In this document: positions 28,705-61,781 of the stretch, in pieces | Layout: every line of letters begins with the position of its first letter | How positions within the stretch are numbered: the first letter of the stretch is position 1 | Program-made: the position numbers and the translations under genes | The notes under the pieces: model-generated | The model's input: only the letters and a program-made list of their open reading frames with translations | Told to the model about the DNA's origin: nothing | The model's database searches: none | NCBI RefSeq assembly: GCF_009498275.1 | Contig: NZ_CP045643.1 | Span: forward strand, 8,680,001 to 8,744,000 | Reading direction: 5' to 3' | Source of the DNA: Streptomyces fagopyri | GTDB lineage: Bacteria > Actinomycetota > Actinomycetes > Streptomycetales > Streptomycetaceae | DNA length: 64,000 nucleotides

Positions 28705-28733
28705 GGGACCATCCCCGCGTGCGCGGGGAGCAG
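28705..28733 (-). CRISPR. Solitary CRISPR repeat (type I-E-like)
   Basis: A 29-base match on the minus strand to the repeat of the 36586 array: CTGCTCCCCGCG, then CACGCGGGGATGG, then TCCC. It is alone, with no second repeat at 61-base spacing on either side. It directly follows the truncated IS630 remnant. Confidence 0.75.
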
Positions 28734-28822
28734 GTCCCGGCGTGGGGACTGGAAGCCGGACGGAGAGCCCGAACGCGCGGAGGTGACCCGCCCCAGAACG
28801 GGACGGGCCACCTCTTCAGCGG

Positions 28823-29020
28823 TTACCGCGTCTGCCGTGCCCGCACCCCCATGACGGTGGCGACGGTCATGCAGACGGTGCTGATGATCGTGCAGACACC
28901 GATGGCCCCGATGGGAGTGGCGAGACCCACGGTGACGATGATGACGACCACGACGACTGCGATGCCGAGAAGTGGTTCATGATCTTTATTGCGGGAATGA
29001 ATAGCTTCGGACGATGGCAC
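28823..29020 (-). CDS. Possible small membrane protein
   Basis: A 65-residue frame from GTG 29020: a 20-residue polar N-terminus, then two hydrophobic segments (LLGIAVVVVVIIVTVGLATPIGAI and VCTIISTVCMTVATVMGV) and a basic end. GAGAGGG lies about 12 bases upstream, a little far. Composition and the helix pair favour a real two-helix membrane peptide, but there is no family match. Confidence 0.4.
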   Translation of the reverse strand: MPSSEAIHSRNKDHEPLLGIAVVVVVIIVTVGLATPIGAIGVCTIISTVCMTVATVMGVRARQTR

Positions 29021-29662
29021 TCGTTGCCTACCCTCTCTGGTGCGAGCCCGTGTGGTTGGTAGCCCGGTTCGGGCCCGCGCCGGTCGTTGAAGCCGACGCG
29101 TATGCGTCGGCTTCTTCGTGTTCACGAGGTAGATTCCCGGAGTGCAGGACCAAACTTCGATATCGCCTTGATTGATCTGAGCTTTTTTGGTGTCCGGCAC
29201 GCTGAACGGGCTCTGAGCTGGCCTTCTTTGTGGAGAAAAGCTCCAAAAAAAATCTTGGAACTCATCCAGCCGCCACGTCCAACGCGGCGCGGTCGCTTGG
29301 CCGGTGTCACGATGCTGGCGGATGAGCTGGCGCTGTGCGCAGCATCGGGGCTTCCATGCCGTGCGCGGCCGCCACCATCTAGCAGGCCGCGCACGGCGCC
29401 CCGGTTCCCCATGCCCCGCCCTGGGCCGAGGACCATGACGGTCACGGTCGGAGTGTGGAGCGTGACGAGAATGTGGCCGCATCGGCGCCCTACCGTTCGT
29501 GCATCTGTGGGTTTTGCGCAGGCCAACGGATTCATCGGAGAGCGGTGGGGGTCTGGATGTCTCCCGTGGCGCTCCCATGCCCTGACTACCCCTCCAGAAC
29601 ATGAGAGAACCGCAGTGACGGGCGCCGGTCCCCGGAGGCATCCTCCGGGGACCGGCCCCGCC
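29021..29662. other. Intergenic region with a terminator
   Basis: About 640 bases holding one clear hairpin (29089-29114). Around 29185-29260 the DNA is unusually AT-rich, with runs of T and A (CTTTTTTGG, CCAAAAAAAATC). No coding frame with a family motif was found. Confidence 0.45.
29089..29114. terminator. Terminator hairpin
   Basis: Perfect 11-base arms GAAGCCGACGC and GCGTCGGCTTC with a GTAT loop, followed on the + strand by TTCGTGTT. It could end transcripts from either side. No intact gene ends right next to it, which fits remnants of a lost gene. Confidence 0.75.
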
Positions 29663-30184
29663 TCAATCCCATCCGAGTGCGCCGCCGTTCACGACCGGCG
29701 TCTCGCCGACGAACGACGTCCCCTCCTCCACAGCGTCGGCCAGGGCCACCAGAAACGCGGTGAGCGAGGGCCAAAGTTGTGCTTCCCCGCCCGACTCCTG
29801 GAAGAAGTAGCCGATGGCGCCCCGGCCAGGGCCCGGCCCAGTGTCGACGAAGAGGCAGCTCGCGCCGTCATGGTTCGCCGCCCACGGGACCCAGTCCAGA
29901 CGCCACCAGTCGGCTTCCACGTCCGGTCCGTCCACCAGGGACACCAGGCGCGCGCGCAGCGACACGGACTCTTCCACGCTGAGGAGGCCGCACCCGGACA
30001 CCAGGAACCGACCTGCCTCCGTGGGGAGTGTGCCGTCGCAATGCGCGTACAACTCACCCAGTTCCGGGAGGATCCCCTCTCTGGCAACCGGCGGCCGCAC
30101 TGCAGCCAGACTCTCCGGTGCCATCACGGCCAGCCACTCCGTCAGCCGCGCCCAGGTCTCCCCGAACGAGCCGTTCCGCGTCAC
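29663..30184 (-). CDS. SMI1/KNR4 (SUKH) family protein
   Basis: A 173-residue cytoplasmic protein of the SUKH superfamily, whose bacterial members are often immunity proteins of polymorphic toxin systems. Family marks: LPELGELYAHCDG near the N-terminus, DWWRLDWVPWAANHDGASCLFVDTGPG in the middle, GAIGYFFQESGG and LTAFLVALADAVEEG. GTG 30184 follows GGAGG at ideal spacing. No toxin gene is adjacent, so if it is an immunity gene it is an orphan. Confidence 0.8.
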   Translation of the reverse strand: MTRNGSFGETWARLTEWLAVMAPESLAAVRPPVAREGILPELGELYAHCDGTLPTEAGRFLVSGCGLLSVEESVSLRARLVSLVDGPDVEADWWRLDWVPWAANHDGASCLFVDTGPGPGRGAIGYFFQESGGEAQLWPSLTAFLVALADAVEEGTSFVGETPVVNGGALGWD

Positions 30185-30435
30185 GCGCACCCTCCGTAGG
30201 ATCCGGCCTTGCACCGGCGGACACCCATTCGATCACGACCGCACCCGGTGCCTCTGGACCCGGCCAGCTGGGCAGTGCTTCAACGCTGCCTGGCTGGCCG
30301 TGAGGCTTTTCCGACCTGGTTGCGTGGGTCAAGGTCGTTCGTCCGGCAGGGCGCTCCACCTTGACGCCCTGAACCACGCCCGCTCCACGGAGTGTGGGTC
30401 GACGGCAGACAGGATGGGAGCTGGGGAGTGGTGGG

Positions 30436-31050
30436 TCAAGGCCGAAGTGCGGGTTTGAGGTAGGGCCTGTCCGACGGATCATTGCGGGGGCCGTTACGCA
30501 CCCAGCGGTGGGAGGGAGGAAGTGCAGTGCCCTGAGGGACGAACCGGAGTCCTCCCCTCCCCGCGATGATGGCGCTGTGCACGATCTTCTCGAACCAGGC
30601 AGCGGCGATCCGGCCGAGATGTTTCGGAGGTCCGGCCGAAGTCAGTGGCTGTACGTGCCTCGTTGGTTCCGGATCCTGCCAGTTCTGAGTGTGGCGCTCG
30701 CTGCAGAAGACCCGGTCGCCGAGGATCGTTGCGCCCACACACATGAAGACTGAACTCTTTCTGCCCTCGTGCCGATCGACCAGATCCACGATGAGCGTGA
30801 CTCTCTCGTCTCCCCGGGCTATCGCCTCGTCCAACGCGGCGTAGTAGGCCGCGTGCTCGGCGGGGGGCTCCCACTGCGATTCCTGCGCGGCGGCGCGTCC
30901 GTCTGCTTCCTCTTCTTCCGGCTCGAAGACGAGCGCAACAGTGTCCATGGGATCGCATTCAGGCCAGGATCGGGCGGACTCCCTCACGACGTCCACGAAG
31001 GCCTTCTGCTCGGTGTTCAGTTCGTCGTCTTCAAACCAGTCCTCGTACAC
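30436..31050 (-). CDS. Hypothetical protein
   Basis: A 204-residue soluble protein, acidic in the first third (EDDELNTEQKAFVDVV, FEPEEEEADG) and basic near the end. The central part has alternating strands and helices (RVTLIVDLVDRH, SSVFMCVGATILGDRVFCSERHTQNW, AAWFEKIVHSAIIA). No signal, membrane helix or catalytic motif was recognised. The end (RPYLKPALRP) is Pro/Arg-rich and may read past the original stop. Confidence 0.55.
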   Translation of the reverse strand: MYEDWFEDDELNTEQKAFVDVVRESARSWPECDPMDTVALVFEPEEEEADGRAAAQESQWEPPAEHAAYYAALDEAIARGDERVTLIVDLVDRHEGRKSSVFMCVGATILGDRVFCSERHTQNWQDPEPTRHVQPLTSAGPPKHLGRIAAAWFEKIVHSAIIAGRGGLRFVPQGTALPPSHRWVRNGPRNDPSDRPYLKPALRP

Positions 31051-31175
31051 GCGCGTGAGAGTACGCGGTGAACAGGAGAAGCTCGTCGGCCGACGTACCC
31101 TCCCTCGTGGCCGATTGCCCTAGTCAAAGGACAGCAGTGGAAGGGTGTCAGAGCCGAGCGTTATGGTGCGTGGTC

Positions 31176-31553
31176 GTGGACGCTACTGATCTTGAACGCC
31201 AGGACAGGACACGATCCGGCTGTATCCCACCGGAACTGGTCTCGAAGCTGCTGGAACGCGGCCATATCGACGAGGTGGAGCTGTACGCAGGCCGCGGGGA
31301 ATGGTTCTGCGCGCTGGCGTGGGCGCGGTTGCTGGGGGAGCAGGGCTGGCAGGCCGACGCGTCCCCACTGGAGGAAGCCGGGGCGCCAGCCGCAGCTACC
31401 ACACCCCAGTCCTGGCCGCCCATTCCGTGCGAGAACAGACTGCTGGGGTACTCCGCGCGGAACGTCAGCCTTCTCGGACCGGGTTCGGGCGCTGGACAGC
31501 TGCAGTTCAGGTGCGCGACAGGGGGAAGCACAGCGAGCAGGTCGAGGGCGTGA
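31176..31553 (+). pseudogene. Truncated gene fragment
   Basis: About 125 codons from GTG 31176. The first 70 residues look like a helical repeat unit (PPELVSKLLERGHIDEVELYAGRGEWFCALAWARLLGEQG) of the kind found at the start of streptomycete repeat proteins with a conserved Gly-x-Trp-x-Cys. After about residue 75 the composition turns to Pro/Ala/Ser and protein-like patterning stops, suggesting a frameshift or deletion junction. Confidence 0.45.
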
Positions 31554-31751
31554 CCGCCCACTGATCGTGATGTCAGAAGCTCGCGGCCTTGCCGATGTTG
31601 AAGTGACGGTTCCGCCGATGCCGTGCGAACGGGAAGTTTACGGCGCATGCTGTTCTAGAGCTGAGGGAACGGCCGGTTTTACCGGGGGACGCAGGGTGTC
31701 CATAGTGGGTTCCGCGCCCGCTCCAGGCAGGCGCGGGCAGAGGGGGATGCC

Positions 31752-32270
31752 ATGGTGCGCTACGTTCACTTTCAGTTGGCGACGATCTTCGAGGTGGGGG
31801 CTGCCATTGGCGTCACTGCGCCTGTGGTCCTCGGCGTGCACGGGCTGCCGCAGAGCAACTATGCACTTCCTCTTTTGTGTGTTTTGGGAGCCAGCGCACT
31901 CTTCGGCCTGCTGGCGGTTTCAACCCGCTCGGGCTGGTTGGGCGGCGAGAAGCGCGATTTCGAGAACGCAGTCCCCCTGGCCGACCCTGAGACGGTACTC
32001 CCCGCCCCTCGCGAGTCGATGCGCCGCAGCTTCGACGGATCCTTCGTTGTCATCGTGGCTCTGCCGACCCTGGTTTTCGGCCTGCTCTGGGGTCCTTGGG
32101 TCATCAGCTGGGGCCTCTTTTTTGTACCGGAGCGGATCGTCAAGGGCGTGTACATGTTCTTCTGGGAGCGACGCCACGGCGTACTCCTGTGGCGTGGAAA
32201 GGTCGAGGAACAGCCCCTGGGTAAGGACCAGTTCCTGTACTCTTCGCCGCGGATCGCGACGCTCGGGTGA
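31752..32270 (+). CDS. Hypothetical integral membrane protein
   Basis: A 172-residue protein with about three to four membrane helices (FEVGAAIGVTAPVVLGVHGL, LPLLCVLGASALFGLLAV, SFVVIVALPTLVFGLLWGPWVISWGLFFV) and a polar C-terminal tail (ERRHGVLLWRGKVEEQPLGKDQ). ATG 31752 has GAGGGGG at good spacing. No family was recognised. It looks intact although its neighbours are broken. Confidence 0.65.
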   Translation: MVRYVHFQLATIFEVGAAIGVTAPVVLGVHGLPQSNYALPLLCVLGASALFGLLAVSTRSGWLGGEKRDFENAVPLADPETVLPAPRESMRRSFDGSFVVIVALPTLVFGLLWGPWVISWGLFFVPERIVKGVYMFFWERRHGVLLWRGKVEEQPLGKDQFLYSSPRIATLG

Positions 32271-32464
32271 GTTCGTACCGCCGGACCGCTACTGACTACC
32301 ACCATCCCTGTGCACCTTCTTCGCCGTCCTGTTCCTTGGCCTCACCTGCCCTACACGCCAGTCATCCCGAGAACACTCCACGACGAGCACCGGTGAATCC
32401 GAGATCCTTTTCAAGATCTGCGAGCACCTCGAAACGGTCCCGATGTGGCCCGACGGGGTATCGC

Positions 32465-32626
32465 ATGGCGCGCCCGCTGAGCGAAGCCACGGTCCGGGCT
32501 CGGGAGCGCGTCCGCGATCTCGGGTTCTTCGACCACTAGGTCGCGGTGGCCATCGATGCCGCCGTCGCAGCCCCGCACGCGACGTATCCACCGGCCGACT
32601 GGGACGCCTACTGCGCGCAACGTTGA
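32465..32626 (+). pseudogene. Small gene broken by an in-frame TAG
   Basis: ATG 32465 opens a frame (ARPLSEATVRARERVRDLGFFDH) stopped by TAG at 32537. The same frame then continues with equally protein-like residues (VAVAIDAAVAAPHATYPPADWDAYCAQR) to TGA at 32624. One base change would restore a 53-residue protein. Function unknown. Confidence 0.5.
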
Positions 32627-32706
32627 CGAACACCCGGAAACGGGACCGTGCTCACCTTTAGAACTCCTAACGAAATGAGCAGTGGGGAACGTTAGGATCG
32701 GTGGTC

Positions 32707-33051
32707 ATGAGTCAGAGTGGTTCGCAAGCGGCAGCGTTCTTCCGGGACGTCCGCCAGAGCGGAGTGGTCTGGCTTGTCCGGGATGACGACGGAAGCCCGG
32801 CTCCCCTTTCCGCGGACGGCACGCGAAGTCTTCCCTTCTGGTCGACCTCGGCCCGCGCCCAGAGGGCGGCGAAGATCTGGGGGCATGGGCTACGGGTCGA
32901 ATCCACGCTCCTGGAAGGCTGGTGCGACCGCGAACTGCCCGATGCCGCCCGGGAGGGACTCATGATCGGCATCAACTGGAGCGGGCCGCGCCTCGTTGGC
33001 TGGAGCTTCACCCCGATGGAAGTCCTCAACCGACTGGCAGCGGCTGACTAG
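32707..33051 (+). CDS. DUF2750 protein, passenger of an IS5-like element
   Basis: A 115-residue soluble protein with the DUF2750 layout: QAAAFFRDVRQSGVVWLVRDDDGSPAPL, LPFWSTSARAQRAAKIWG, and INWSGPRLVGWSFTPMEVLNRL. The biochemical role of the family is unknown. The gene lies inside the terminal repeats of the IS, 29 bases from the left end. Its TAG overlaps the stop of the opposing transposase gene (shared CTAG at 33048-33051), so it is built into the element. ATG 32707 was chosen; GTG 32701 is in frame. Confidence 0.82.
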   Translation: MSQSGSQAAAFFRDVRQSGVVWLVRDDDGSPAPLSADGTRSLPFWSTSARAQRAAKIWGHGLRVESTLLEGWCDRELPDAAREGLMIGINWSGPRLVGWSFTPMEVLNRLAAAD

Positions 33052-33953
33052 CTCACGACATCGCTCGCCAGAACGCGCAGGCGTCGCCAGCAGATGAGTG
33101 CGCATCCGAGGGCGAGGAAGGCTTCGTGGATGTCGTCGCGGATCTCCCAGCGGATCCGCAGGCGGCGGAACCAGTGCAGATGGGCAAACGCGCGCTCCAC
33201 AACCCAGCGTTGAGTACCCAGGCCGGAGCCGTGCTCGGTGCCGCGGCGGGCGATCAGCGGCTTCACGCCGAGGTCCCGGACCAGCCGGCGGTACTTGTCG
33301 TGGTCGTAGCCGCGGTCACCCAGCACCACGTCCGGGCGGCGGCGGGGGCGGCCGTGTTTGCCCCGCACAGGCGGCACGGCCTGGAGCAGGGGGACCAACT
33401 GGGTGACATCGTTGCGGTTGCCGCCGGTCAGGGTGACGGCGAGCGGGATGCCGGTGGCATCGGTGATCAAGTGGTGCTTGCTGCCCGCCCTGCCCCGGTC
33501 GACAGGGCTTCGTCCCGTCTTGGGCCCCCCTTTAACGCCCGGATGTGGGAGCCGTCGACCACCGCCCGAGAGAAGTCCAGGGCGTTCGCGGCACGGAGCT
33601 TGGCAAGGAGGACCTCGTGCAGCCGGGACCACACACCGGCTTCTGTCCACTCGGCCAGGCGACGCCAGCAGGTCATGCCCGAGCCGAAGCCGAGTTCCTG
33701 CGGCAGGTGTTCCCAGGCGATCCCGGTGTGCAGCACGAACAGGATGCCCTGGAACACCAGCCGGTCCGGATGCCGCTTGCGTCCCGGATGCCGAGCTCGA
33801 CGATCGACCCTGGGGAACAGCGGCTCGACCACCGTCCACCCTGGGGAACAGCGGCTCGACCACCGTCCACAACGCGTCATCGACTTCCCACGGCTTCGGC
33901 CGAGCCACCCCGCACCCCCGGATCAATGGTCCCGGAGCGATCCAACCACTCAA
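33048..33953 (-). pseudogene. IS5-family transposase, inactivated by a 31-bp duplication
   Basis: DDE transposase in two overlapping frames. N-terminal part: LVFQGILFVLHTGIAWEHLPQELGFGSGMTCWRRL, with the first Asp in AVVDGSH. C-terminal part after a -1 shift at the slippery AAAGGGGGG: VVLGDRGYDHDKYR with the second Asp and RWVVERAFAHLHWFRRLRIRWE with the Glu. The programmed shift is normal for this group. However, a 31-bp tandem duplication at 33808-33869 near the 5' end throws the original start (VDDALWTVVEPLFPR) out of frame with the rest, so this copy is probably dead. Confidence 0.8.
33808..33869. repeat. 31-bp tandem duplication in the IS5 transposase
   Basis: Two perfect head-to-tail copies of a 31-base unit starting CCCTGGGGAACAGC (33808-33838 and 33839-33869). 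Since 31 is not a multiple of three, it shifts the reading frame. Confidence 0.9.
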
Positions 33954-33975
33954 AGATCATTTCGTTAGGAGTTCT

Positions 33976-35407: not shown

Positions 35408-36477
35408 GGGCCTGTGTGATGTCGTGATCATTCTTGGGTTTTGTCCTGTTCGAGGGGTGGAATCCGATAGGACAGTGGTCGTGACACGTAGGCAACTCAC
35501 CAATGCCCAGTGGAAGTTCATCGAGCCGTACCTGCCGATCGGTAGGTACGGCCCGTACCCGGAGCGGTTGCGGGAGCAGTTCGAGGGTGTGATCTGGCGG
35601 TTTCGGTCCAGTGGTCAGTGGCGGGAGATGCCTGCCGAGTTCGGGCCGTGGGCGACCGTCTACGGACGCTTCCGTGTCTGGCGGGACGCCGCTGTGTTCA
35701 CCGACCTGCTGGAAGGCCTGATCGCCGAGGGTGCCCGTATGGGAAGAACGGACTTGTCGCTGGTCAGCGTGGATTCCACCACGGTCCGCGCCCACCACGA
35801 TGCCGCAGGGCTGCGCGTCAGCAAGCACCTCATGGAGGCTCTGGAAGAAGCCGCGCAGGAGCAAGAGGCAGCCCGACAAAAAGGGGTGGCCCGGAGGAAC
35901 AGAACGGACACACAGAGCGCCGGCGCGTCCGACGCAGACACAAGCTCCGCCTGAGGGAAGCCTTGCTCGGCAGATCCCGGGGCGGCCTGACCAGCAAGAT
36001 TCACCTTGCCGCGGATCGCAGGTGCCGTCCGCTCGCACTGGTCCTGACCGTCGGACAGGCCGGGGACAGTCCGCAGTTCGTCCCCGTCCTCGCGAAGGTG
36101 AGAATCCGTCTGCCCGCCGGCCCTCCCCGCACCAAGCCCGGCGCGGTCGCCGCGGACAAGGCCTACTCGTCGCATGACAACCGCGCCTACCTGCGCAAAC
36201 GTGGAATCAAGGCAGTCATCCCGGAAAAACGGGACCAGGCCGCCAACCGCAAGAAGAAGGGCACACGAGGCGGTCGGCCCGTCAGCCACGACGCCGACCT
36301 CTACAAGGAACGCAACACCGTCGAACGCCTGATCAACAAGCTGAAGGCCTGGCGCGGCATCGCCACCCGCTACGACAAGACCCCGGACAGCTACCTCGCC
36401 GGCCTCCACCTCCGCGCCGCAATGATCTGGATCGATGACCTGATCAAGACCACATGATCACGACATCACACAGGCTC
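35408..36477 (+). mobile_element. 1,070-bp IS5-family element, copy A
   Basis: Ends begin GGGCCTGTGTGATGTCGTG and match in inverted orientation (right end has GGCTC instead of GGCCC). TA is duplicated on both sides (35406-35407 and 36478-36479). It is nearly identical to copies at 47433-48502 and 50789-51858. It lies directly against the IS701 element and next to the CRISPR array, where it may have removed the leader. Confidence 0.93.
35481..36457 (+). CDS. IS5-family transposase, made by -1 frameshifting (copy A)
   Basis: Two overlapping frames make one DDE transposase. The first (GTG 35481 to 35954) has RRQLTNAQWKFIEPYLP and the first Asp in VSVDSTTVRAHHDAAG. The second (about 35880 to 36457) has GGLTSKIHLAAD, the second Asp in AVAADKAYSS and the Glu in NTVERLINKLKAWRGIATRYDK. 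The probable slip site is ACAAAAAGGGG at 35875-35885, the usual -1 signal in this family. The same arrangement in all three copies shows that it is normal rather than damage. Confidence 0.9.
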
Positions 36478-36585
36478 TAGTACTCACACGCCAAGGCCCG
36501 CATGTCGGAATCACCAGAAATGCCGGAATCGATGAAAGTCAACAGAAACGTGCCTCCCAGCCGCTAACGCCCCAGGTCAGGCAGC

Positions 36586-36795
36586 CTGCTCCCCGCGCGC
36601 GGGGATGGTCCCCTCTTCGATCCGGCGAACCTGGGCGGGAAGGTCTGCTCCCCGCGCGTGCGGGGATGGTCCCAGGGACGAGGTCTTCGGGTCTGCTCAC
36701 CAGTTCTGCTCCCCGCGTGTGCAGGGATGGCCCCCGCTCCTGACTCCGCTTGTCGGGGTCTTACGCCTGCTCCCCGCGCGTGCGGGGATGGTCCT
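36586..36795 (+). CRISPR. Four-repeat CRISPR array, type I-E-like, no cas genes
   Basis: Repeats at 36586-36612, 36645-36673, 36706-36734 and 36767-36795. Consensus: CTGCTCCCCGCGCG, then TGCGGGGATGG, then TCCC (29 bases). Repeat 1 lacks two bases and repeat 3 has three changes. The three spacers are exactly 32 bases each. Length, spacer size and the hairpin CCCCGCGCG/CGGGG fit subtype I-E. No cas gene lies within the window. Upstream there are only 108 bases before IS copy A, so a leader is missing or shortened. Confidence 0.93.
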
Positions 36796-37938: not shown

Positions 37939-38913
37939 GTGACCTGGACGCTGCCTGATCCCATGCTGACTTCCCCCACACCCCTACCGAGGCTCACGCC
38001 CGGGTGGACGGGGGAACCGAAATGGGACGGATTCCGCGCCCTGCTCCACACCGACGCCGGGCAGGTGGTGCTGCGCTCGAGGCGCGGCACCGAGATGTCG
38101 CCGGCGTTCCCCGACATCGCGGCCGCCGCGGTGCAGCTGCCGGACGCCACCGCGCTGGACGGGGAACTGGTCGTGTGGGAGGACGACCGGCTCGCGTTCG
38201 AGCGGCTGCAGAACCGTCTCCAGCGCAGGGGCGCCGCGGCCGCCCAGGCCGCACAGGACTGGCCCGCCCACTTCGTGGCCTTCGACCTCCTGCGACTGTC
38301 CGGTACGGACACGACCGCTTGGCCCTACCAGCGCCGCCGGGCCGCACTGGAATCGGTGTTCACCTCCTGGGGGCTGACCGCCCCCTGGACGCTGTCCCCG
38401 TCGACCACCAACCCCGACAGCATCCGCGAATGGCTCACCTGGACCACGGTGGGCATCGAAGGGGTCGTCTTCAATCGGCTGAACGAGCCCTACCGGCCCG
38501 CAGCCAGAAGCTGTCGAAAGTACGAAGTCCGCGAGACCACCGAAGCCATCGCCGGAGCCATCACCAGCCAACTGTCCACTCGCACCACGCTTCTGCTCGG
38601 CCGGTACAACAACCACAAACAGCTGCAGTACATCGGCCGCACTACCACCCTCCCCCACACCGCCGGCAGCGCGGTCGCCGGACTCCTCACCGCGGCCCCG
38701 GCTGGCCACCCATGGACAGGATGGTCGTTCTCCGCAGGATGGGGCAGCCGCGAGACTCTCGACGTCACCATGGTCGAACCCGAACTGGTCGTGGAAGTCA
38801 GCGCCGACGTCGCCCGCGACCCGGTCGGCCGCTGGCGCCACCCCGCACGCTGGCACCGAGCCCGCACCGACCTCACCCCCAACGACATCCCGCGCAGCGC
38901 AACGTCCCCGTGA
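37939..38913 (+). CDS. ATP-dependent DNA ligase (LigC-like)
   Basis: A 324-residue ligase of the nucleotidyltransferase superfamily that seals nicks in double-stranded DNA using ATP. Motif I EPKWDGFR has the adenylated Lys (about 28); motif III LDGELVVW (about 75), motif IV IEGVVFNRL (about 175) and motif V CRKYEVRE follow. The C-terminal OB fold is present (LLLGRYNN, LVVEVSAD, RHPARWHR). The size fits the small actinomycete LigC type that works in repair or NHEJ. No ku or polymerase gene is nearby. GTG 37939 gives the expected N-terminus. Confidence 0.9.
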   Translation: MTWTLPDPMLTSPTPLPRLTPGWTGEPKWDGFRALLHTDAGQVVLRSRRGTEMSPAFPDIAAAAVQLPDATALDGELVVWEDDRLAFERLQNRLQRRGAAAAQAAQDWPAHFVAFDLLRLSGTDTTAWPYQRRRAALESVFTSWGLTAPWTLSPSTTNPDSIREWLTWTTVGIEGVVFNRLNEPYRPAARSCRKYEVRETTEAIAGAITSQLSTRTTLLLGRYNNHKQLQYIGRTTTLPHTAGSAVAGLLTAAPAGHPWTGWSFSAGWGSRETLDVTMVEPELVVEVSADVARDPVGRWRHPARWHRARTDLTPNDIPRSATSP

Positions 38914-46128: not shown

Positions 46129-46225
46129 CACCGGGGGAGAGCGCTCAGAAGCCGATCGCCGTCCACAAGTCTCTGGCCGCCGCCTGCGAAGTCACACACT
46201 GGCTCAAACGGCCAGCGGCCCCGGG

Positions 46226-46315
46226 ACCATCCCCGCGCGGGCAGGGATGGTCTCTGCACCGCACCGAAGTTGAGGCCGCTGAGCCCCTGCTCCCCACGCG
46301 TGCTGGGATCGCCCC
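46226..46315 (+). CRISPR. Decayed two-repeat CRISPR remnant
   Basis: Repeat-like sequences at 46226-46254 (first four bases changed, then TCCCCGCGCG and GGGATGGTCTC) and 46287-46315 (CTGCTCCCCACGCGTGC, then TGGGATCGCCCC) are separated by exactly 32 bases, the spacer length of the 36586 array. Several point changes show decay. A truncated P-loop gene starts at the end of the second repeat. Confidence 0.65.
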
Positions 46316-54060: not shown

Positions 54061-54106
54061 GGACACTTCCGACCTCCCGGCGCCGGCGGTCGCTACGATC
54101 TGCGGC

Positions 54107-54877: not shown

Positions 54878-56939
54878 CAGGGGAGGTGCGGCGGGGGCCG
54901 CCCGGCTGCCGCTACGCAAGAGCCTGGCGGGGCGGCTGTTGACCGTGACGGCGCTGGTGGCCTCGTGCTCGGTCGCCGCGACCGCCTGGCTGGCCGTGCA
55001 GACGACCTCCGTCGCGATCCGCCAGGAGCAGGGTCAGAACCTCAAGTCCGACGCGAATATCTACAACACCCTCCTCGGCTACGCGGCCACCCACCCCGAC
55101 TGGGACGGCGTCGACACCACCGTGCGAGATCTGGCCCTGGAGTCCGGGCGCCGGATCGTGCTCACCACGCCGGGCCGACGCCCGTTCGTGGACTCTGCCG
55201 ACTCGCGCTCAGCGGGCGGCGGTTCGTCCGACGATCTGCTCGCTCAGCAGGCCTCGGCGGTCGTGGATCCACGCTCCGTCGACACCGTGCTGGTGCCCGA
55301 CGCGGCCAAGGCCAGCGCGGACCGCGTCGATCCACGGGCCGTGGGGCCCTTCCGGCTGCCCGCGAAGGAACACGACGCACTGCGGAAGGCCGCCGCCGGG
55401 AGGGTGGAGTGCCTCAGCCAGATGGGTATCGCCGCCGACGTCGTCGAGAGCCCGGGCGGACGGCCCCGCGTCCAGTTCGTGAGCGAAGAGACCGAGGGGG
55501 GGACCGATAGCGTCACCGACCGTGACATGGAGGCCAAGTGCTTTGCACCCTACCCGGTCGGTCCCACCGCGACCGAGCGGAAGGCCCTGAGCGCCCTCAA
55601 CCAACTGGCTGACGCCTGTCTGAAACGACAGGGTCGCACCGCCGTGAAACTGAACCTGGACCTGTCCTGGGACCGGAGTTACGCATACGGGCGGGACGAC
55701 GCGGTCTCCGGCGCCGAGGACGGCCTCAGCGATCGGGAGGCGAAGGCCCTGGCCGCCAAGAAGGCGGAGGACGCCGCGACGGCCGAACGTAAAGCGGCTT
55801 CCGGCGGCGCACTCGACTACGCCCCCGCCGAGATCCGCGACAGCGCGTACGACCGGGCCGTGGCCAACTGTGTCGAAAGCGCCCGCCGGGAACAGCTCAC
55901 GGACTATGTCGCCGAGCCCGCACTCCTGTTCATCGACGGCCCCGGTGCCGCCGGCGTGCCTGGCTTCGACCTCTCCCGCGCCAACACCGCACGCATCGCC
56001 GGTGTCACCGCTCTGGTCCTCGCCCTCACCGTCGGCGCCTCGGTGCTCGCCGGAGCCAGGCTCGTACGCCCATTGCACGCGCTCACCGGCGCCGCCCAGC
56101 GCATGCGGGAGGGCCTGGACGCGACGCCGGTGCCCGTGCCCGTCGTCTCCGACAATGAGATCGGACGGCTGACGGCGGCCTTCAACGACATGGCCGCGCA
56201 CCGGGCCCGCCTGGAGGAGCAGCGCAAGGTGATGGTCAGCGATGTCGCCCATGAGCTGCGAACGCCGCTGAGCAACATCCGGGGCTGGCTGGAGGCGGCC
56301 CACGACGGACTGGCCGTGCCGGACCCCGCGTTCGTCTCCTCGCTCCTGGAGGAGGCGGTGCAGCTCCAGCACCTCATCAACGACCTCCAGGACCTGGGCG
56401 CGGCTGACGCGGGCGCCCTGCGGCTGCAGCGGAAGCCGGTACGGATCGACGAGCTGCTCGGCCAGGTCGCCGCCGCGCACCAGGGGTTGGCCGAGACGGC
56501 GGGCGTCACCCTCACAGTCCTGACACCGCCGCCGGGCACCCCTCACCCACCGCTCCTCGACGCCGACCCCGTACGGCTGCGGCAGACCGTCAGCAACCTG
56601 CTCTCCAACGCGGTGCGCCACACCCCGGCCGGCGGCACGGTGACCCTGCGCCGGTACGTCACCGACCCGGGGGACGAGCTCGCCGTGGAGGTGTCCGACA
56701 CCGGCAGTGGCATTCCGGCGGGCGACCTCCCGTACGTGTTCGACCGTTTCTGGCGGGCGGAGAAGTCCCGCAATCGCAGCACCGGCGGCAGCGGCCTCGG
56801 CCTGGCGATCGTCCTCAAGCTCGCCGAGGCACACGGCGGCACGGTGGACGTGGCGAGCGCGGAGGGGGAGGGGGCCACCTTCACCCTGCGGCTGCCGACA
56901 GCCGAGTCACGGAAGCCGGAGGGCCCCGGTCGACCCTGA
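54864..56939 (+). CDS. Sensor histidine kinase
   Basis: A 691-residue membrane kinase. Helix 1 (LLTVTALVASCSVAATAWLAV, about 25-45), a large extracellular sensor of about 320 residues with four cysteines, helix 2 (IAGVTALVLALTVGASVLAGA, about 375), HAMP, then the H-box DVAHELRTPLSN (His about 462), N-box SNLLSNAVRHTP, G1 DTGSGIP and G2 GGSGLGLAIV. The long external domain probably reads a wall or envelope signal. It forms an operon with the response regulator. A sortase pair follows 125 bases later. Confidence 0.93.
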   Translation: MRRPDRGGAAGAARLPLRKSLAGRLLTVTALVASCSVAATAWLAVQTTSVAIRQEQGQNLKSDANIYNTLLGYAATHPDWDGVDTTVRDLALESGRRIVLTTPGRRPFVDSADSRSAGGGSSDDLLAQQASAVVDPRSVDTVLVPDAAKASADRVDPRAVGPFRLPAKEHDALRKAAAGRVECLSQMGIAADVVESPGGRPRVQFVSEETEGGTDSVTDRDMEAKCFAPYPVGPTATERKALSALNQLADACLKRQGRTAVKLNLDLSWDRSYAYGRDDAVSGAEDGLSDREAKALAAKKAEDAATAERKAASGGALDYAPAEIRDSAYDRAVANCVESARREQLTDYVAEPALLFIDGPGAAGVPGFDLSRANTARIAGVTALVLALTVGASVLAGARLVRPLHALTGAAQRMREGLDATPVPVPVVSDNEIGRLTAAFNDMAAHRARLEEQRKVMVSDVAHELRTPLSNIRGWLEAAHDGLAVPDPAFVSSLLEEAVQLQHLINDLQDLGAADAGALRLQRKPVRIDELLGQVAAAHQGLAETAGVTLTVLTPPPGTPHPPLLDADPVRLRQTVSNLLSNAVRHTPAGGTVTLRRYVTDPGDELAVEVSDTGSGIPAGDLPYVFDRFWRAEKSRNRSTGGSGLGLAIVLKLAEAHGGTVDVASAEGEGATFTLRLPTAESRKPEGPGRP

Positions 56940-57063
56940 TGGGATGACGACAGCGCTCTGACAGTTTCCGCACAAGTGGCCGTCAGGGTGAAGCCATGCC
57001 CGGAACCTGGTGCGGATCAGCAACCAGGAAACGACCAAGCCGGGCTGGAACTGGAGCCCTCAC

Positions 57064-57456
57064 ATGTCCCGCCGTCTCACCCTGCGCCCACTGCGTATCG
57101 CTGTCCTGACCGGCGTCGCGGCCGGCGCGCTGCTCGTCCCGGCCACCGCGGCCTTCGCCACCGATCAGACTCCGACGCCGGGCGCGACCGACTCGACCTC
57201 GGCCGACAAGGAGGCCCTGGCGAAGAAGAAGGCCGAGGACGCCAGGACGCTCAAGGAGGCCGAGGCCCGGAAGGCCGCCGAAGCCCAGAAGGCCGGAGGC
57301 AAGGACTACCCGCGTGGCGGTGTCGCCGCGGGCGAGGCCCCCTCCCAGGACGACAACACCGGCACGCTCATCGGTTCGGCCACCGGCGCGCTGCTGCTCG
57401 CGGGCGCCGGCACCTACGTACTGCGCCGCCGCACCACCGCCCGCCGCGAAGGCTGA
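57064..57456 (+). CDS. Secreted wall-associated protein, likely sortase-system partner
   Basis: A 130-residue precursor. Signal peptide IAVLTGVAAGALLVPATAAFA, a charged Ala/Lys/Glu coiled-coil-like stretch (EALAKKKAEDARTLKEAEARKAAEAQKAGG), then a C-terminal membrane helix (IGSATGALLLAGAGTYVL) and an RRRTTARREG tail. This is the layout of sortase-anchored proteins, but no clear LPxTG or LAxTG is seen before the helix (the nearest is NTGTL). It sits directly upstream of a class F sortase. ATG 57064 is used. Confidence 0.8.
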   Translation: MSRRLTLRPLRIAVLTGVAAGALLVPATAAFATDQTPTPGATDSTSADKEALAKKKAEDARTLKEAEARKAAEAQKAGGKDYPRGGVAAGEAPSQDDNTGTLIGSATGALLLAGAGTYVLRRRTTARREG

Positions 57457-57485
57457 CCCGGCAGCACGACCTCTCGTACGAAACG

Positions 57486-58181
57486 GTGGCGCCGCCCTTC
57501 ACCAGGCGGCGCCCTGTGCGTTCCGGCGAACCCTCGCACCCTGTTCTGGAGCCCGAGTTGCCCCCTGCACACCGTCCGGCCCTGTCCCGGGCCCGCCTCG
57601 CGACCCTCACCCTGTTGACCCTCGTCACCCTGCTCACCGGCTGTTCGTCCGGCCCCGACCCGACGGTCCGGGTCGCCCCAACCGCCCCCGCCGCCGCGTC
57701 GGGCGCTGCGAAGTCCGAGCGGCCTGCGGACGACGCTCCGGCGGCCCCTGCCAAGGTGGCCATTCCCTCCGTGGGGATCACCAGTTCGCTGATGGAGTTG
57801 GGCCTCAACACGGACCGGACAGTCCAGGTCCCGCCGGCCGAGGAGGGGATGACCGCGGGCTGGTACACGGGCGGTGCGGTGCCCGGTGAGATCGGCGCGG
57901 CCGTCATCATCGGCCACAACGACACCCGCTTCGGCGAGGCCGTCTTCCACGACCTGAAGAAGATCAAGGAGGGTGCGGACATCACCGTCACCGACAAGAC
58001 GGGAAAAGCCCTCCACTTCACCGTCACGGCCACGGAGAGCGTTGCCAAGAACGCCTTCCCGACGGAGAAGGTCTACGGGCCGACCCAGGAACGTGCTCTA
58101 CGGCTCATCACGTGCGACGGCGACTTCGACGCGCAGGGGCACCCTGTCGACAACCTCATCGTGTACGCGACAGCGAGCTGA
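57486..58181 (+). CDS. Class F sortase
   Basis: A 231-residue membrane-bound transpeptidase. The N-terminal hydrophobic segment ends in LLTGC, so it may be a lipoprotein. After an Ala/Pro linker the sortase barrel starts at VAIPSVGITSSLMELGL, with catalytic His in VIIGHNDTRFG, Cys in LRLITCDGDFD and Arg-containing ERALRL nearby. Class F enzymes in actinomycetes attach proteins to the wall, and the neighbour at 57064 is the obvious candidate. GTG 57486 lacks a strong ribosome site; GTG 57519 is possible. Confidence 0.88.
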   Translation: MAPPFTRRRPVRSGEPSHPVLEPELPPAHRPALSRARLATLTLLTLVTLLTGCSSGPDPTVRVAPTAPAAASGAAKSERPADDAPAAPAKVAIPSVGITSSLMELGLNTDRTVQVPPAEEGMTAGWYTGGAVPGEIGAAVIIGHNDTRFGEAVFHDLKKIKEGADITVTDKTGKALHFTVTATESVAKNAFPTEKVYGPTQERALRLITCDGDFDAQGHPVDNLIVYATAS

Positions 58182-58901
58182 GGGCCGTAGGCGTGTCCGT
58201 TTCGCCCTGTCGTCACGAGTAACGCCCGCAGCTCAATCGTCAGACGCCGACGCCACCCCACCACCCCCGATGGGGCTACTCAAAGCCCTCTTCGGCCGCC
58301 CCGACAAGGACACCCCACCCCGGCCCCAGCCGGGCTGTAAAAGCAGCCTTCAACTGGCCGACGATAGACGGAAGTTGAGCAGCACACTCACACACAAAGC
58401 GCCTGTGGCCTGTGCCACGATGATCCAGGAGTCCCACCCACCCAGGGGCGCCTGCCGTGCGCAGCCGTTTCGCCACCCCGCCGGCGGCTGCGCGCGGCAC
58501 CCCTGCCGCCCGGGCGACACGGTGTCCGAACCCGTCGCCGGCTGCCAGGACATAATCACCCCGCCGCGCGCAGTCCATCGTCGTCGTCCGCTCTGGGGGC
58601 TGCGCACGGCACCCGGTCTTGTGAGCCGGACCCCGGGTTCGACGCCGGGGCCCGGCTCGCGCGCCGTACGGCGGGAGGTGGTCCGGCGCTGCCATGTGCA
58701 ACCTGGTGATCTGGTCCCGCGTTACGGCCCCGATGCGGATAATCCTGGGCATGAACGTCCCACGCGATGCGCAGCTGCGCGCGGCGGTTGTGATGCTGGG
58801 CCCGTAGCCGGAGAATCCGGGGAGCGAAACGCGACGGGTTTCCGACTGCCGTCGCCGATACCGGGAATCGCTGTGCTGTGCCGGGTGGCTAGCCTGTCGG
58901 T
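58182..58901. other. Intergenic region after the sortase
   Basis: About 720 bases. A short protein-like start (GLLKALFGRPDKD from ATG 58270) soon degenerates. No full gene is supported. A TAGCCT box at 58889-58894 probably gives the leaderless promoter of the next gene. Confidence 0.45.
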
Positions 58902-60254
58902 ATGTCAGAGCGTGTCACCGCGGGCCGCGTAGACGGTTTGATCTCTCTGGGTGCCGCGGATGCCTTGTGGGCCGGTTTGACTGCCGGCAGCGTTGTGCCG
59001 ACGGCCTCTGCGGTATTCACCTCCTTTCCCGTGCATGTCCAGGCAGGGTATGTGCTGCTCGGCCGGCGTGTGGTGGCGATGGTGAAGGCCAGCGGCGGCC
59101 CGTGGGGCGTTTCGGAGATGGAGGTGCGCCGGGCTGCCACGGAGTTGAGCGCGGTGGAGATGGACCGCCAGGACCTGGTCCGTATCGGCCCATTCGGCAG
59201 TGCGCTGAAGCCGGAACAGAACGAGGGAACGCTGGTGCCGTGGCGCGAGCGCATCTCCCGGGATCTGCAGGAAGCGGGCGGCCCCGGGCGCCCAGGACAA
59301 GGCGGAGACGCCCGGCCGTCCCATCTGGCGGGGATCGACTGGCGGAGGCTGCTCGTGCAACGGCCTCATGGCCGGACGGCACGGGCGTGGTGGCTGCCGC
59401 GCGCGGTGGTCAGGCTGCTGGACGCGGCAGCCCACACGGAAACACAGTGGCAGCATGCCAGGCGGGCCCGCCAGGCGAACACGGCCGTGACCGAGCTGCC
59501 CGACCGCCCTGGGCGGACCCGGGCCGCCGACGGCGGGCAGACGACGAGCCCCGATGCCCCAGCCGTCCCGCTGCGTCCCTATAACGGGGAACTGCAGGGC
59601 CAGCTGTACTCGGTGCTCAGCAGGAAGCCCGGCATGGCACGGAAGGTGGCCCGGTGGCAGTGTGCGGTCTGCCGCACCGCACCCGCGACGGTGCTGGACC
59701 ATTGCCATGAACACGGTTATGCCCGTGCCCCGGTCTGCCAGTCCTGCAACACGCAGGAGCGCCCCGACCACCTCTACAGCAACGACATCCGAGTGGCCGG
59801 CCACTACACCCGCCTCTTCGACACCCAGGCTGCCGACTGGCTCCGGCACTGGCACCGCTGCCCCGGCTGCCGCGCCCGCACCACCCTGCCACTCGCCCAC
59901 CTCGCCGCATGGACCGCCCACGTAGCGTGCCGGCCACAACGCCCGACCCACCGCGATGCCCGCAGCTCCCGCGGACGTAAACCCTGCGGAGCGCTGCGCG
60001 TTTCGTGGACCGGCAGCCACCACGCGCCGCATGCCTGCGTCCTCACGGTCGCCGTCGACTTCTGTCCGTCCGGCGAGCACCGTGTCCTGGCGCACGTCTC
60101 CTACCGTGAAGCCGCCGAACAGTTCCGTACCTGGCTGGCCGAGACCGCCCCCTCTGTGGCCGCTGCGGCCGGACCCGATCGCACCGATGACCTCCCCGCT
60201 CAGCCCCGGCCCGTCATCGCGGACACCAACGGTGACGGCCTGGCCCTGTTCTGA
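58902..60254 (+). CDS. Protein with endonuclease VII-like (HNH) domain
   Basis: A 450-residue protein. The N-terminal 200 residues are of unknown type with a Trp-rich block (WRRLLVQRPHGRTARAWWLP). Residues about 250-300 carry the recombination endonuclease VII pattern: CAVCRTAP, DHCHEHGYARAPVCQSCNTQE, with two zinc Cys pairs around the D-H-C-H catalytic core. A second Cys pair (CPGCRA) follows at about 325. Phage endonuclease VII cuts branched DNA. ATG 58902 follows a TAGCCT box by seven bases. It is close to a decayed CRISPR array, but no link is proven. Confidence 0.78.
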   Translation: MSERVTAGRVDGLISLGAADALWAGLTAGSVVPTASAVFTSFPVHVQAGYVLLGRRVVAMVKASGGPWGVSEMEVRRAATELSAVEMDRQDLVRIGPFGSALKPEQNEGTLVPWRERISRDLQEAGGPGRPGQGGDARPSHLAGIDWRRLLVQRPHGRTARAWWLPRAVVRLLDAAAHTETQWQHARRARQANTAVTELPDRPGRTRAADGGQTTSPDAPAVPLRPYNGELQGQLYSVLSRKPGMARKVARWQCAVCRTAPATVLDHCHEHGYARAPVCQSCNTQERPDHLYSNDIRVAGHYTRLFDTQAADWLRHWHRCPGCRARTTLPLAHLAAWTAHVACRPQRPTHRDARSSRGRKPCGALRVSWTGSHHAPHACVLTVAVDFCPSGEHRVLAHVSYREAAEQFRTWLAETAPSVAAAAGPDRTDDLPAQPRPVIADTNGDGLALF

Positions 60255-60297
60255 AAGAACAGCACCCGATCCGACATCACCCTCACCTGCGCCGACT

Positions 60298-60313
60298 GAA
60301 GAAAAATTTCTTC
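60298..60313. promoter_or_regulatory. AT-rich palindrome GAAGAAA-N2-TTTCTTC
   Basis: Perfect 7-base arms around AA, 44 bases after the endonuclease stop, unusual in this GC-rich DNA. It could be an operator for a lost downstream gene. Confidence 0.4.
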
Positions 60314-60633
60314 GCCCGGATAGAACCCTCCACGTCCCCATCTCCGTAGTACGGGATGGATGCCAAGTGCTGCTGCCGTTTGTCGTCCCCCCCGACGGTC
60401 AGGCGGGCGCACGGGGCATTCGGGGATTCCCTCTCGCCCATGGAGTAGGGAAGTAAGCCGTGGCCTGGGCATGTGCCGCCTCAGGCCACGGCACCCACAA
60501 CAGAAAGTGAACCCGCTGCGCGCTCCGGCCGCACTCGGGTATGACGCTCCCGTCGAACGTGACGACGGGATCTCGGTGGCTACCGTGGGGGTGCCCTGCC
60601 GATCCTTATCGTCCGCCGGACTCAGGTATCAAA

Positions 60634-60665
60634 GCGTGGCCCCGCAAGGCTCCGCGGGGCCACGC
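60634..60665. terminator. Strong 12-bp hairpin
   Basis: Perfect arms GCGTGGCCCCGC and GCGGGGCCACGC with an 8-base loop. It separates the endonuclease region from the CRISPR remnant. Confidence 0.8.
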
Positions 60666-60762
60666 TCCTGCGCTTCGCGGATGCAGATGCCCGTGATCAC
60701 GTTCTGGGCGTGCGAACGCCGGGCCCTGACCCCGGACTCTCGTCACTCAGCAAGAGACGCGT

Positions 60763-60982
60763 CTGCTCCCCGCGCCCGCGAGGATGATCCCGAGACGTGC
60801 CCGCCTTGCTCTCATCGGAAGCGCTGCTACCTGCGCCTCGCGCCCCGCAGGGACGCTCTCGTTCCTGGATACGACCCGGGGGCGTTCCCGGCCTGCTTCC
60901 CGCGCCAGCGGGGATGGTCTCCTCGAGCGCGGCGGCACCCCGGCCGGATGCCGCCGCTTTCCGCGCCTGCGGGGATGGTCGG
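60763..60982 (+). CRISPR. Decayed four-repeat CRISPR array
   Basis: Repeat-like units at 60763-60791, about 60831-60860 (one inserted base), 60893-60921 and 60954-60982. Each aligns to the 36586 repeat with 3-10 changes, best in CGCGCCTGCGGGGATGGTC of the last unit. The second and third gaps are exactly 32 bases; the first is 39. The orientation is the same as the intact array. No cas gene is near, and a toxin-antitoxin operon follows. Confidence 0.72.
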
Positions 60983-61016
60983 AGCGATGCTTCTTGCGGA
61001 AGGTGCTGCAGCGGAG

Positions 61017-61033
61017 TTCTACCAGCGGTAGAA
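61017..61033. promoter_or_regulatory. Operator of the toxin-antitoxin operon
   Basis: TTCTACC-AGC-GGTAGAA, perfect 7-base arms, ending seven bases before the antitoxin ATG. This is the expected place for autorepression by a ribbon-helix-helix antitoxin. Confidence 0.75.
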
Positions 61034-61040
61034 TCGCGGT

Positions 61041-61295
61041 ATGAGCAGGCCCACGAGCATCAAGACGAGTGAGGAAGTACGCGACCGGCTGCGTGTCCTC
61101 GCTGCCGAGCGCGGTACCACGATCACTGAGCTCCTCGAGGAGCTCGCGAGCCGTGAGCTCACCGACGCCGAGAGGCAGCGGCGTGCCGTGGAGGCGGCTG
61201 CCGAGCTCGGCGTCGACTACAGCGAGCAGGTCCAGCACGCCGGTCAGGACGCCTGGGCGAAGATCCGTGCTCATCAGGGCGGCGCCGCCGCGTGA
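61041..61295 (+). CDS. Ribbon-helix-helix antitoxin
   Basis: An 84-residue DNA-binding antitoxin of type II systems. The N-terminal RHH reads TSIKTSEEVRDRLRVLAAERGTTITELLEELASREL; the C-terminal half (RRAVEAAAELGVDYSEQVQHAGQ) should wrap the toxin. ATG 61041 lies seven bases after a perfect palindrome, so it likely represses its own operon. The stop overlaps the toxin start as GTGA. It resembles MazE/VapB-like antitoxins of Streptomyces. Confidence 0.88.
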   Translation: MSRPTSIKTSEEVRDRLRVLAAERGTTITELLEELASRELTDAERQRRAVEAAAELGVDYSEQVQHAGQDAWAKIRAHQGGAAA

Positions 61296-61666
61296 ACCTG
61301 ACGGCCGTCCTGGACCACACCGCCCTGGCCGCTCTGTACCGTGCGGATCCCTTCTTCACCGGCCTGTACATCGAAGCCTCACGCGGTACCGGCCGCGTTC
61401 TCATCCCGTTGCTGTCTGTCCTTGCAGCCGAGCGCCGGCTCACGGGGGCGGGCCGGCACGCGGCGTCCCTGCGTTTCGCGGAGAGTGTTCCCTTCACCGC
61501 GGATCACGCGAGGGATGCAATGGACTGGGGAAAGGTGGAGATGCCTGTCGCTCACGCGGCGGCGATCGCCTGGCACGCGGTGAAGGCGGGAGAGCCGCTC
61601 ACCGTCCTGTCCTTGGAGCCCGAGCTGTATACGGGCACCGGCATCACACCCCTCAACCCCACCTGA
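61292..61666 (+). CDS. PIN-like toxin of the type II toxin-antitoxin pair
   Basis: A 124-residue protein with a PIN/VapC-like fold pattern: TAVLDHTALAALYRADPFFTGLY at the start (Asp8 where VapC has its first catalytic Asp), a helical centre (HAASLRFAESVPFTADHARDAMDW) and VAHAAAIAWHAVKAGEPLTVLSLEPELYTG at the end. PIN toxins are RNases, but not all four acids are obvious here, so catalytic competence is uncertain. GTG 61292 overlaps the antitoxin stop, giving coupled translation. Confidence 0.82.
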   Translation: MNLTAVLDHTALAALYRADPFFTGLYIEASRGTGRVLIPLLSVLAAERRLTGAGRHAASLRFAESVPFTADHARDAMDWGKVEMPVAHAAAIAWHAVKAGEPLTVLSLEPELYTGTGITPLNPT

Positions 61667-61752
61667 CCCCACACCCCAACCCGAGGCAACCCGGGCACTC
61701 GCTGGAATGCCTGGACCACGCCCGCGGGTAGTCCCGTCCTGGGATCTTAGGG

Positions 61753-61781
61753 CTGCTCTCCGCACGCGCGGGAATGGTCCC
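61753..61781 (+). CRISPR. Solitary CRISPR repeat fused to a truncated gene
   Basis: CTGCTCTCCGCACGCGCGG, then GAATGGTCCC, a 29-base match with three or four changes to the array repeat. Immediately after it a truncated hydrolase gene starts. No second repeat follows at 61-base spacing. Confidence 0.65.

What the first reader, a model, noticed from the sequence alone, without database searches (positions are those of the whole stretch)
28705..61781. One CRISPR repeat family dispersed over five loci without any cas gene
The same 29-base I-E-like repeat occurs as a lone copy (28705), a 4-repeat array (36586), a decayed pair (46226), a decayed 4-repeat array (60763) and another lone copy (61753). 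Exact 32-base spacing survives even in degenerate loci, so these are relics of real arrays rather than chance hairpins. Lone copies this far from cas genes suggest either breakup of one large array by rearrangement, or repeats that spread by other means.
Basis: partly seen in the sequence, partly recalled or inferred. Interest (0 to 1): 0.75.

Follow-up and report, generated by a model that had tools for sequence, protein, structure and literature searches.

The report
Dead CRISPR arrays with palindromic joints
The scattered repeats are the remains of bacterial immune-memory arrays in a Streptomyces chromosome where the immune-system genes looked for were not found; the remains themselves are ordinary, but some contain an odd mirror-image repeat that probably marks where two arrays were cut and joined head to head.

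Summary
One 29-nt type I-E repeat family occupies all five reported places, far beyond chance. In the 8.88-Mb single-contig genome it forms 13 loci, 8 of them in the last 172 kb; Cas1, Cse1 and the Cas3 HD domain were not found. One array (36586) keeps a recognisable leader. A sister array at 8.767 Mb holds a spacer matching a Streptomyces phage capsid gene (30/32, AAN PAM). So these are relics of real arrays. Dispersed and Cas-less arrays of this family are common in Streptomyces and its plasmids, so this part is ordinary. Breakup of one array fits poorly; several separate arrays, plausibly plasmid-derived, that lost cas and decayed among insertion sequences fit better.

What my literature searches did not show described: the 46226 repeat is palindromic (b'-core-b). 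Four such repeats occur in this genome. An exact-pattern scan of a collection of 84,980 species genomes found 36; 26 have a repeat in 61-nt register facing outward. The opposite form (a-core-a') is rare. I read them as scars of recombination between the palindromic cores of two divergent arrays, deleting both leaders (and cas, if it lay between). That step is inferred, and some loci do not fit it.

The parts
28705..28733 (-). lone 29-nt I-E repeat
   Evidence: E=4.8e-8
28674..28687 (-). 14-nt truncated second repeat, 17 nt beyond the lone copy; the copy was probably part of an array
36503..36583 (+). CRISPR leader, the only match in the G000 stretches examined
   Evidence: nhmmer profile of 26 leaders from relatives, E=6.5e-9
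36586..36612 (+). first repeat, 27 nt (2-nt deletion)
36645..36673 (+). repeat 2, exact consensus
36706..36734 (+). repeat 3
36767..36795 (+). repeat 4
35600..36481 (+). insertion sequence (DDE transposase 35618-36457); plasmid homology from the start of the query (35600) to 36464-36501, ending within about 40 nt of the leader match
46223..46254 (.). palindromic repeat b'-core-b (BB), read as an array junction
46287..46315 (+). decayed ordinary repeat, in 61-nt register with the palindromic one
60763..60791 (+). decayed array, repeat 1
60824..60860 (+). decayed array, repeat 2 (heavily mutated, about 8 nt longer)
60893..60921 (+). decayed array, repeat 3
60954..60982 (+). decayed array, repeat 4
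61753..61781 (+). lone decayed repeat

Best explanation
These are dead remnants of several type I-E CRISPR arrays in a Streptomyces chromosome in which Cas1, Cse1 and Cas3 were not found. Live relatives carry multiple leader-bearing arrays of the same family, on chromosomes and on plasmids, often with divergent arrays either side of the cas operon. Inferred history: such arrays entered the chromosome, plausibly by exchange with linear plasmids (9 of the 13 loci lie within 172 kb of an end of the contig); cas was lost; insertion sequences and point mutation eroded the rest. Without Cas machinery the relics cannot now act as immune memory. The palindromic repeats (window 46223 and three more in the genome) most likely formed when the palindromic 16-nt cores of two oppositely oriented repeats recombined, deleting everything between them. 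That removes both leaders, plus cas if it lay between, and leaves b'-core-b with the rest of each array pointing outward in register. Shown: family, map, absence of the tested Cas proteins, leader, phage spacer, outward-facing register, excess of b'-core-b over a-core-a'. Inferred: the deletion itself, that cas was inside it, and the plasmid origin.
For: Relics: family and periodicity; no Cas1/Cse1/Cas3_HD; leader; phage spacer 30/32, 5' AAC; AAN PAM as reported in PMC12231136; one-sided decay; 109 plasmid records with the family, 106 Streptomyces. Divergent arrays around cas: G025, G052, G054, plasmid L190, and PMC4762764. Junctions: 26 of 36 palindromes have a repeat (8 or fewer mismatches) in 61-nt register facing outward. 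In 392 genus genomes the exact 24-mer form was found in 19 genomes for b'-core-b against 3 for a-core-a'; 11 of 19 b'-core-b loci examined and 0 of 3 a-core-a' loci have in-register array neighbours. The two facing spacers are unrelated at 10 of 10 loci compared (7-11 of 32 columns alike), which speaks against fold-back duplication. In 9 of 13 two-sided loci the core loop equals a prefix of the left array's loop plus a suffix of the right array's (mean 3.4 when loops are permuted, P=0.0002). In G000 at 1457998 the left half shares a core variant with the left arm that its own right half lacks. S. microflavus plasmid L191 has the palindrome, and no leader match, beside a gene that three S. anulatus plasmids have followed by a leader and an array. 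8 of 36 arms end in a truncated, tail-like repeat, each arm tested at two places (43 of 4000 random places).
Against: No before-and-after pair with cas between the two arrays was found. 4 of 13 two-sided loops are not explained as chimeras, among them G000's own 1457998 and the plasmid L191 (also L107, L087). L117 and L087 have unusual changes mirrored on both halves, which suggests copying between halves. Sixteen of 26 armed palindromes have one arm only. Same-orientation neighbours exist: L135 stands in a long one-way array, and L116 has a truncated repeat 59 nt upstream. Many arms are one or two repeats long, and some genomes have two palindromes close together. Genomes with palindromes are not clearly poorer in Cse1: 7 of 19 have it against 21 of 43 repeat-bearing same-genus genomes (counted). 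The leader profile found nothing in L190, which has long arrays beside cas, so 'no leader match' is weak evidence of no leader. In L191 the left flank and the 318 nt beside the short arm have no match in the S. anulatus plasmids. G000 has no close relative in the set, so plasmid origin and its own syntenic history were not shown.
Confidence: 0.7

Rival explanations
1. Template-switch (quasi-palindrome) copying: at a leader-proximal repeat, replication or repair copies the 3' half onto the 5' half, turning a-core-b into b'-core-b in place.
For: Sixteen of the 26 armed palindromes have an arm on one side only. Mirrored unusual changes in L117 and L087. 11 of 13 two-sided palindromes have perfectly matching halves, although most came from a pattern that demands most of this. 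L135 and, by a truncated repeat, L116 have a same-orientation neighbour.
Against: Does not by itself explain in-register arms of opposite orientation with unrelated spacers, or chimeric loops in 9 of 13. Predicts palindromes mostly inside single-orientation arrays and about as many a-core-a' (3 against 19 genomes).
Confidence: 0.2
2. Inversion inside or between same-oriented arrays through the palindromic core, giving b'-core-b at one end and a-core-a' at the other.
For: Arrays in the S. anulatus plasmid stretches run in one orientation. Loosely defined a-core-a' elements end arrays in L193 and L194 and occur in L132 and L071.
Against: Within 2.5 kb of 30 palindromes (two of them the same locus under two ids) no a-core-a' at 3 or fewer mismatches was found; the three weak calls were ordinary repeats. 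Exact a-core-a' is rare and without array neighbours.
Confidence: 0.12
3. Divergent palindrome-centred mini-arrays are a functional design: one repeat serves two outward-transcribed guide units that work in trans with a distant or plasmid-borne I-E system.
For: Intact repeats (0-2 mismatches) in many arms and perfect palindromes in several genomes. Seven of 19 such genomes encode Cse1.
Against: In 41 loci scanned no full leader match abuts a palindrome; there is a partial match about 100 nt upstream in L116 (the profile can miss leaders). In G000 the copies are decayed and Cas1, Cse1 and Cas3_HD were not found.
Confidence: 0.08
4. A non-CRISPR hairpin or MITE-like repeat family.
For: Lone copies exist and the loci share no flanks.
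Against: Leader, 61-nt period, phage-matching spacer, and the same repeats in cas-flanking arrays of relatives. No Rfam family matched at E<=1.
Confidence: 0.02

Closest known systems
Type I-E CRISPR arrays of Streptomyces (S. avermitilis CRISPR I/II, PMC4762764, passages seen; linear plasmid pSHK1, as summarised in PMC12231136, passages seen)
   Same: 29-nt repeat with CCCCGC-N4-GCGGGG core, 32-nt spacers, leader, several arrays per replicon, insertion sequences splitting arrays
   Different: No Cas1, Cse1 or Cas3_HD found in this genome; repeats decayed; one leader match; palindromic junction repeats
Cas-less (orphan) Streptomyces arrays (SCP1 array; 46 of 70 genomes with an array against 26 of 70 with cas, PMC12231136)
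   Same: Short arrays without cas, on chromosome or linear plasmid
   Different: 13 mapped loci in one chromosome, 4 of them with a palindromic repeat
Divergent arrays flanking a cas operon (described for most actinomycete I-E systems in PMC4762764)
   Same: Same outward orientation as the two arms around a palindromic repeat
   Different: Here a single chimeric repeat joins the arms, with neither cas nor a leader match between them

Membership tests
Type I-E CRISPR array | 29-nt repeat with palindromic core, about 61-nt period | tested here: met
   one period in the 60763 array is 69
Type I-E CRISPR array | leader next to the first repeat | tested here: met
   met at 36586 only; no match at the other G000 loci, by a profile that also finds none in the plasmid locus L190 with cas
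Type I-E CRISPR array | spacers from mobile elements | tested here: met
   1 of the 6 spacers in the two arrays searched against phages matches a capsid gene 30/32; the remaining spacers were not searched against phages
[quoted passage not shown]
   no PF01867, PF09481, PF18019; other cas families not searched
Type I-E CRISPR array | transcription and Cas6e processing | not testable with these tools
   needs RNA data
Structured RNA or hairpin family of Rfam | match to a curated covariance model | tested here: not met
   no match at E<=1 in window 28000-62500
Structured RNA under selection | compensatory changes in the stem | tested here: not met
   0 of 6 pairs with a change on both sides in 18 copies
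Scar of deletion between divergent arrays | two outward, in-register arms with unrelated spacers | tested here: met
   10 of the 26 armed palindromes have both arms; spacers unrelated at 10 of 10 loci compared; 16 of 26 have one arm only
Scar of deletion between divergent arrays | pre-deletion state in a relative, with leaders and cas between | tested here: inconclusive
   leader-bearing state at the syntenic plasmid site; cas between not shown

The most novel reading that the evidence does not exclude
Palindromic b'-core-b repeats are a recurrent, recognisable product of one joining reaction at the hairpin core of divergent type I arrays. They are molecular scars that mark where leaders, and in many cases a whole cas operon, were deleted, so past CRISPR losses can be counted and dated from sequence alone.
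Probability: 0.35. Interest if true: 0.6.

Novelty: new variant of a known kind. Interest (0 to 1): 0.4.

Why it matters
How bacteria lose CRISPR-Cas is usually inferred from absence. If palindromic repeats are scars of loss, each is a positive record: it shows the joint, what survives of each array, and by its decay roughly how old the loss is. It would also mean that the hairpin core that guide RNA processing relies on is a weak point at which arrays in opposite orientation delete what lies between them, which matters because actinomycete I-E cas operons usually sit in that place. The relic loci on their own are ordinary for Streptomyces.

Tried and rejected
Single broken-up array: rejected as main reading, no shared flanks among the loci and one leader match. 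Fold-back inverted duplication: rejected, arm spacers unrelated. Selection on the hairpin: no compensatory changes. Empty-site comparison for the lone copy at 1.1008 Mb (100 genomes): the best relative matched about 415 nt on one side at 81%, and a homologous segment found in many genomes ends near the repeat; no usable empty site. Toxin-antitoxin association: the pair at 61041-61666 lies between the 60763 array and the 61753 copy; outside the G000 loci a tblastn against the sequences then held found only a 29-residue match at the edge of L107, so I treat it as coincidence. Cas genes beside palindromes: tblastn with Cas proteins recovered from L072 (not the whole set) found them in 3 of the 35 stretches, L116, L129 and L135. 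Phage search with the 36586 array: no match. Cse1 in palindrome-bearing genomes: no clear depletion. Rfam: nothing. The shared 2-nt deletion in the first repeats of the 36586 and 8767550 arrays stays unexplained, as does GGGAC directly before the repeats at 28705 and 8796607. Some palindromes without arms (L103, L112, L133, L137 and others) may be ordinary terminator-like hairpins (my judgement); all were kept in the denominator of 36. Eleven of the 19 loci repeat loci, so those two surveys are not independent; one of the 20 places had no locus and was not examined. G000's own four palindromes carry mismatches and do not count in the exact tests.
Full report
WHAT IS THERE. The window is G000:C1:8680001-8744000 of a single-contig 8,880,330-bp genome, 99.98% complete. 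The genus is Streptomyces: survey loci of same-genus genomes are identical in sequence to stretches of named Streptomyces contigs. The repeat CTGCTCCCCGCGCGTGCGGGGATGGTCCC is present at all five reported places. At 5 or fewer mismatches the window has 9 copies; ten shuffles had none at 6 or fewer.

WHOLE GENOME. A covariance model from 18 copies gave 30 hits at E<=1 and 22 at E<=0.001. I group them into 13 loci: 21.95 kb, 1.1008 Mb, three between 1.4498 and 1.4581 Mb, and eight between 8.7087 and 8.7967 Mb, the last 172 kb; the one at 8.7494 Mb is weak (E=0.009). Eight of 13 in that stretch gives a binomial P of 2e-11, with the stretch chosen after seeing the data. Cas1, Cse1 and the Cas3 HD domain were not found in the genome while control genomes ring. 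The part of the window around the loci is rich in transposases (window 33545, 35618, 42127, 48535, 52315), and the insertion sequence at 35618 ends within about 40 nt of the leader match of the 36586 array.

REAL ARRAYS, NOW DEAD. A leader profile from 26 arrays of relatives hits one place in the G000 stretches examined (window and L039-L045), window 36503-36583, E=6.5e-9, abutting the 36586 array. The profile is not exhaustive: it found nothing in L190, a plasmid stretch with long arrays beside cas. The third spacer of the sister array at 8.7674 Mb matches the major capsid gene of Streptomyces phages (7 records); against phage Quantum it is 30 of 32 identical with AAC directly 5', which fits the AAN PAM reported for S. 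avermitilis (PMC12231136, passages seen). The 36586 spacers match no phage record. The stem pairs decay on one side only, with no compensation. With these Cas proteins missing I infer no present immune function.

CONTEXT IN RELATIVES. The repeat family was found in 48 of 120 genomes searched, G000 included. Counting same-genus handles from the listings, 43 of 73 have it and 22 of those 43 lack Cse1. On plasmids the family is in 109 of 72,556 records, 106 of them Streptomyces; the five plasmids I opened are linear. S. anulatus plasmid stretches L193-L195 carry many arrays of one orientation among plasmid genes, with 20 leader matches. A review reports at least one array in 46 of 70 Streptomyces genomes but cas in only 26 of 70, a Cas-less array on SCP1, and seven arrays on pSHK1 (PMC12231136, passages seen). 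In S. avermitilis cas is flanked by two arrays, one of them split by four transposase genes, and in most actinomycete I-E systems the two arrays run in opposite directions (PMC4762764, passages seen); G025, G052, G054 and plasmid L190 show the same. So dispersed, Cas-less loci are an expected state in this genus, and the plasmids are a plausible vehicle (inferred).

THE PALINDROMIC REPEATS. An ordinary repeat is a-core-b, with a = CTGCT and b = ATGGTCCC. At window 46223, and at 22012, 1449780 and 1457998 of the genome, the repeat is b'-core-b, with two mismatches to the search pattern each. At 1457998 it stands between a minus repeat and a plus repeat, in 61-nt register. An exact-pattern scan of the collection of 84,980 species genomes found 36 such palindromes in 35 stretches, all in records whose names I recognise as actinobacteria. 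Of the 36, 26 have a repeat with 8 or fewer mismatches at the 61-nt position facing outward, and 10 of these have both arms. L135 stands in a one-way array and L116 has a truncated same-orientation repeat 59 nt upstream. Ten have no arm; some of these may be plain terminators. In 392 genus genomes a 24-mer test of equal stringency found b'-core-b in 19 genomes and a-core-a' in 3. Of the 19 b'-core-b loci examined (of 20 places), 11 have an outward repeat in register (L149's is shifted by 2 nt); of the 3 a-core-a' loci, none. Eleven of these 19 repeat the loci.

HOW THEY ARISE. At 10 of 10 two-sided loci compared the facing spacers are unrelated, which speaks against fold-back duplication. In 9 of 13 the loop reads as the left array's loop up to a point and the right array's after it (permuted mean 3.4, P=0.0002). 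At G000 1457998 the left half carries a C-to-T core variant shared with the left arm and absent from its own right half, although its loop is one of the four that do not read as a chimera. Eight of 36 arms end in a truncated repeat typical of array tails. On the S. microflavus plasmid L191, nine minus repeats, a palindrome and a plus repeat lie beside a gene that in three S. anulatus plasmids is followed by decayed repeats, a leader and an array pointing away from it; L191 has no leader match there, and the homology breaks at the start of a decayed repeat. The simplest reading is recombination between the palindromic cores of two divergent repeats, deleting what lay between. Against it: 4 of 13 loops do not fit, L191's among them; L117 and L087 have mirrored unusual changes that suggest copying between halves; 16 of 26 armed palindromes have one arm only; genomes with palindromes still have Cse1 in 7 of 19; loosely defined a-core-a' elements do occur (L132, L071; L193, L194); no case with cas demonstrably between the arrays was found; and the 318 nt beside the short arm in L191 have only short matches elsewhere. 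I put about 0.5 on the junction reading and 0.9 on the relic reading.

PRINT. Papers that describe palindromic junction repeats or array-to-array scars did not appear in the searches (listings of the best hits seen; open-licence library only). That is not proof of absence from print.

Noticed in passing
L053-L060 (G031): A Cse1-bearing Streptomyces genome has at least 11 small arrays, ten with a clearly shared leader, at places from 1.69 to 6.91 Mb; how leader plus array copies move is not explained.
   Followed up: partly
L193, L194, L195: S. anulatus linear plasmids carry long successions of leader-bearing I-E arrays in one orientation, interleaved with genes; 20 leader matches in three stretches of 40-45 kb.
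   Followed up: partly
window 61041-61666: A ribbon-helix-helix antitoxin-like gene and its downstream partner lie between the 60763 array and the lone 61753 repeat.
   Followed up: partly
window 36586-36612 and L044:3551-3577: The first repeats of two arrays 51 kb apart in opposite orientation share the same 2-nt deletion, with different spacers and a leader match at only one.
   Followed up: no
window 28734-28738 and L045:12637-12641: The lone repeats at 28705 and 8796607 are both preceded by GGGAC, the start of the b' sequence.
   Followed up: no
L087:1500-1531 and L117:6373-6404: Palindromic repeats with unusual base changes mirrored on both halves, as if one half had been copied onto the other.
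   Followed up: no
window 37939-38913: ATP-dependent DNA ligase domain protein (its C-terminal domain scores just under the cut-off) in the transposase-rich stretch, 1.1 kb after the 36586 array.
   Followed up: no
L104:1802 and L104:5385; G391:C1:788053 and 789767: Two palindromic repeats lie only 3.6 kb and 1.7 kb apart in one genome, which a single cas deletion does not explain.
   Followed up: no
L190: Long minus and plus arrays flank I-E cas genes on a linear plasmid, yet the leader profile from other Streptomyces arrays finds no leader there; its leaders may be of another type.
   Followed up: no
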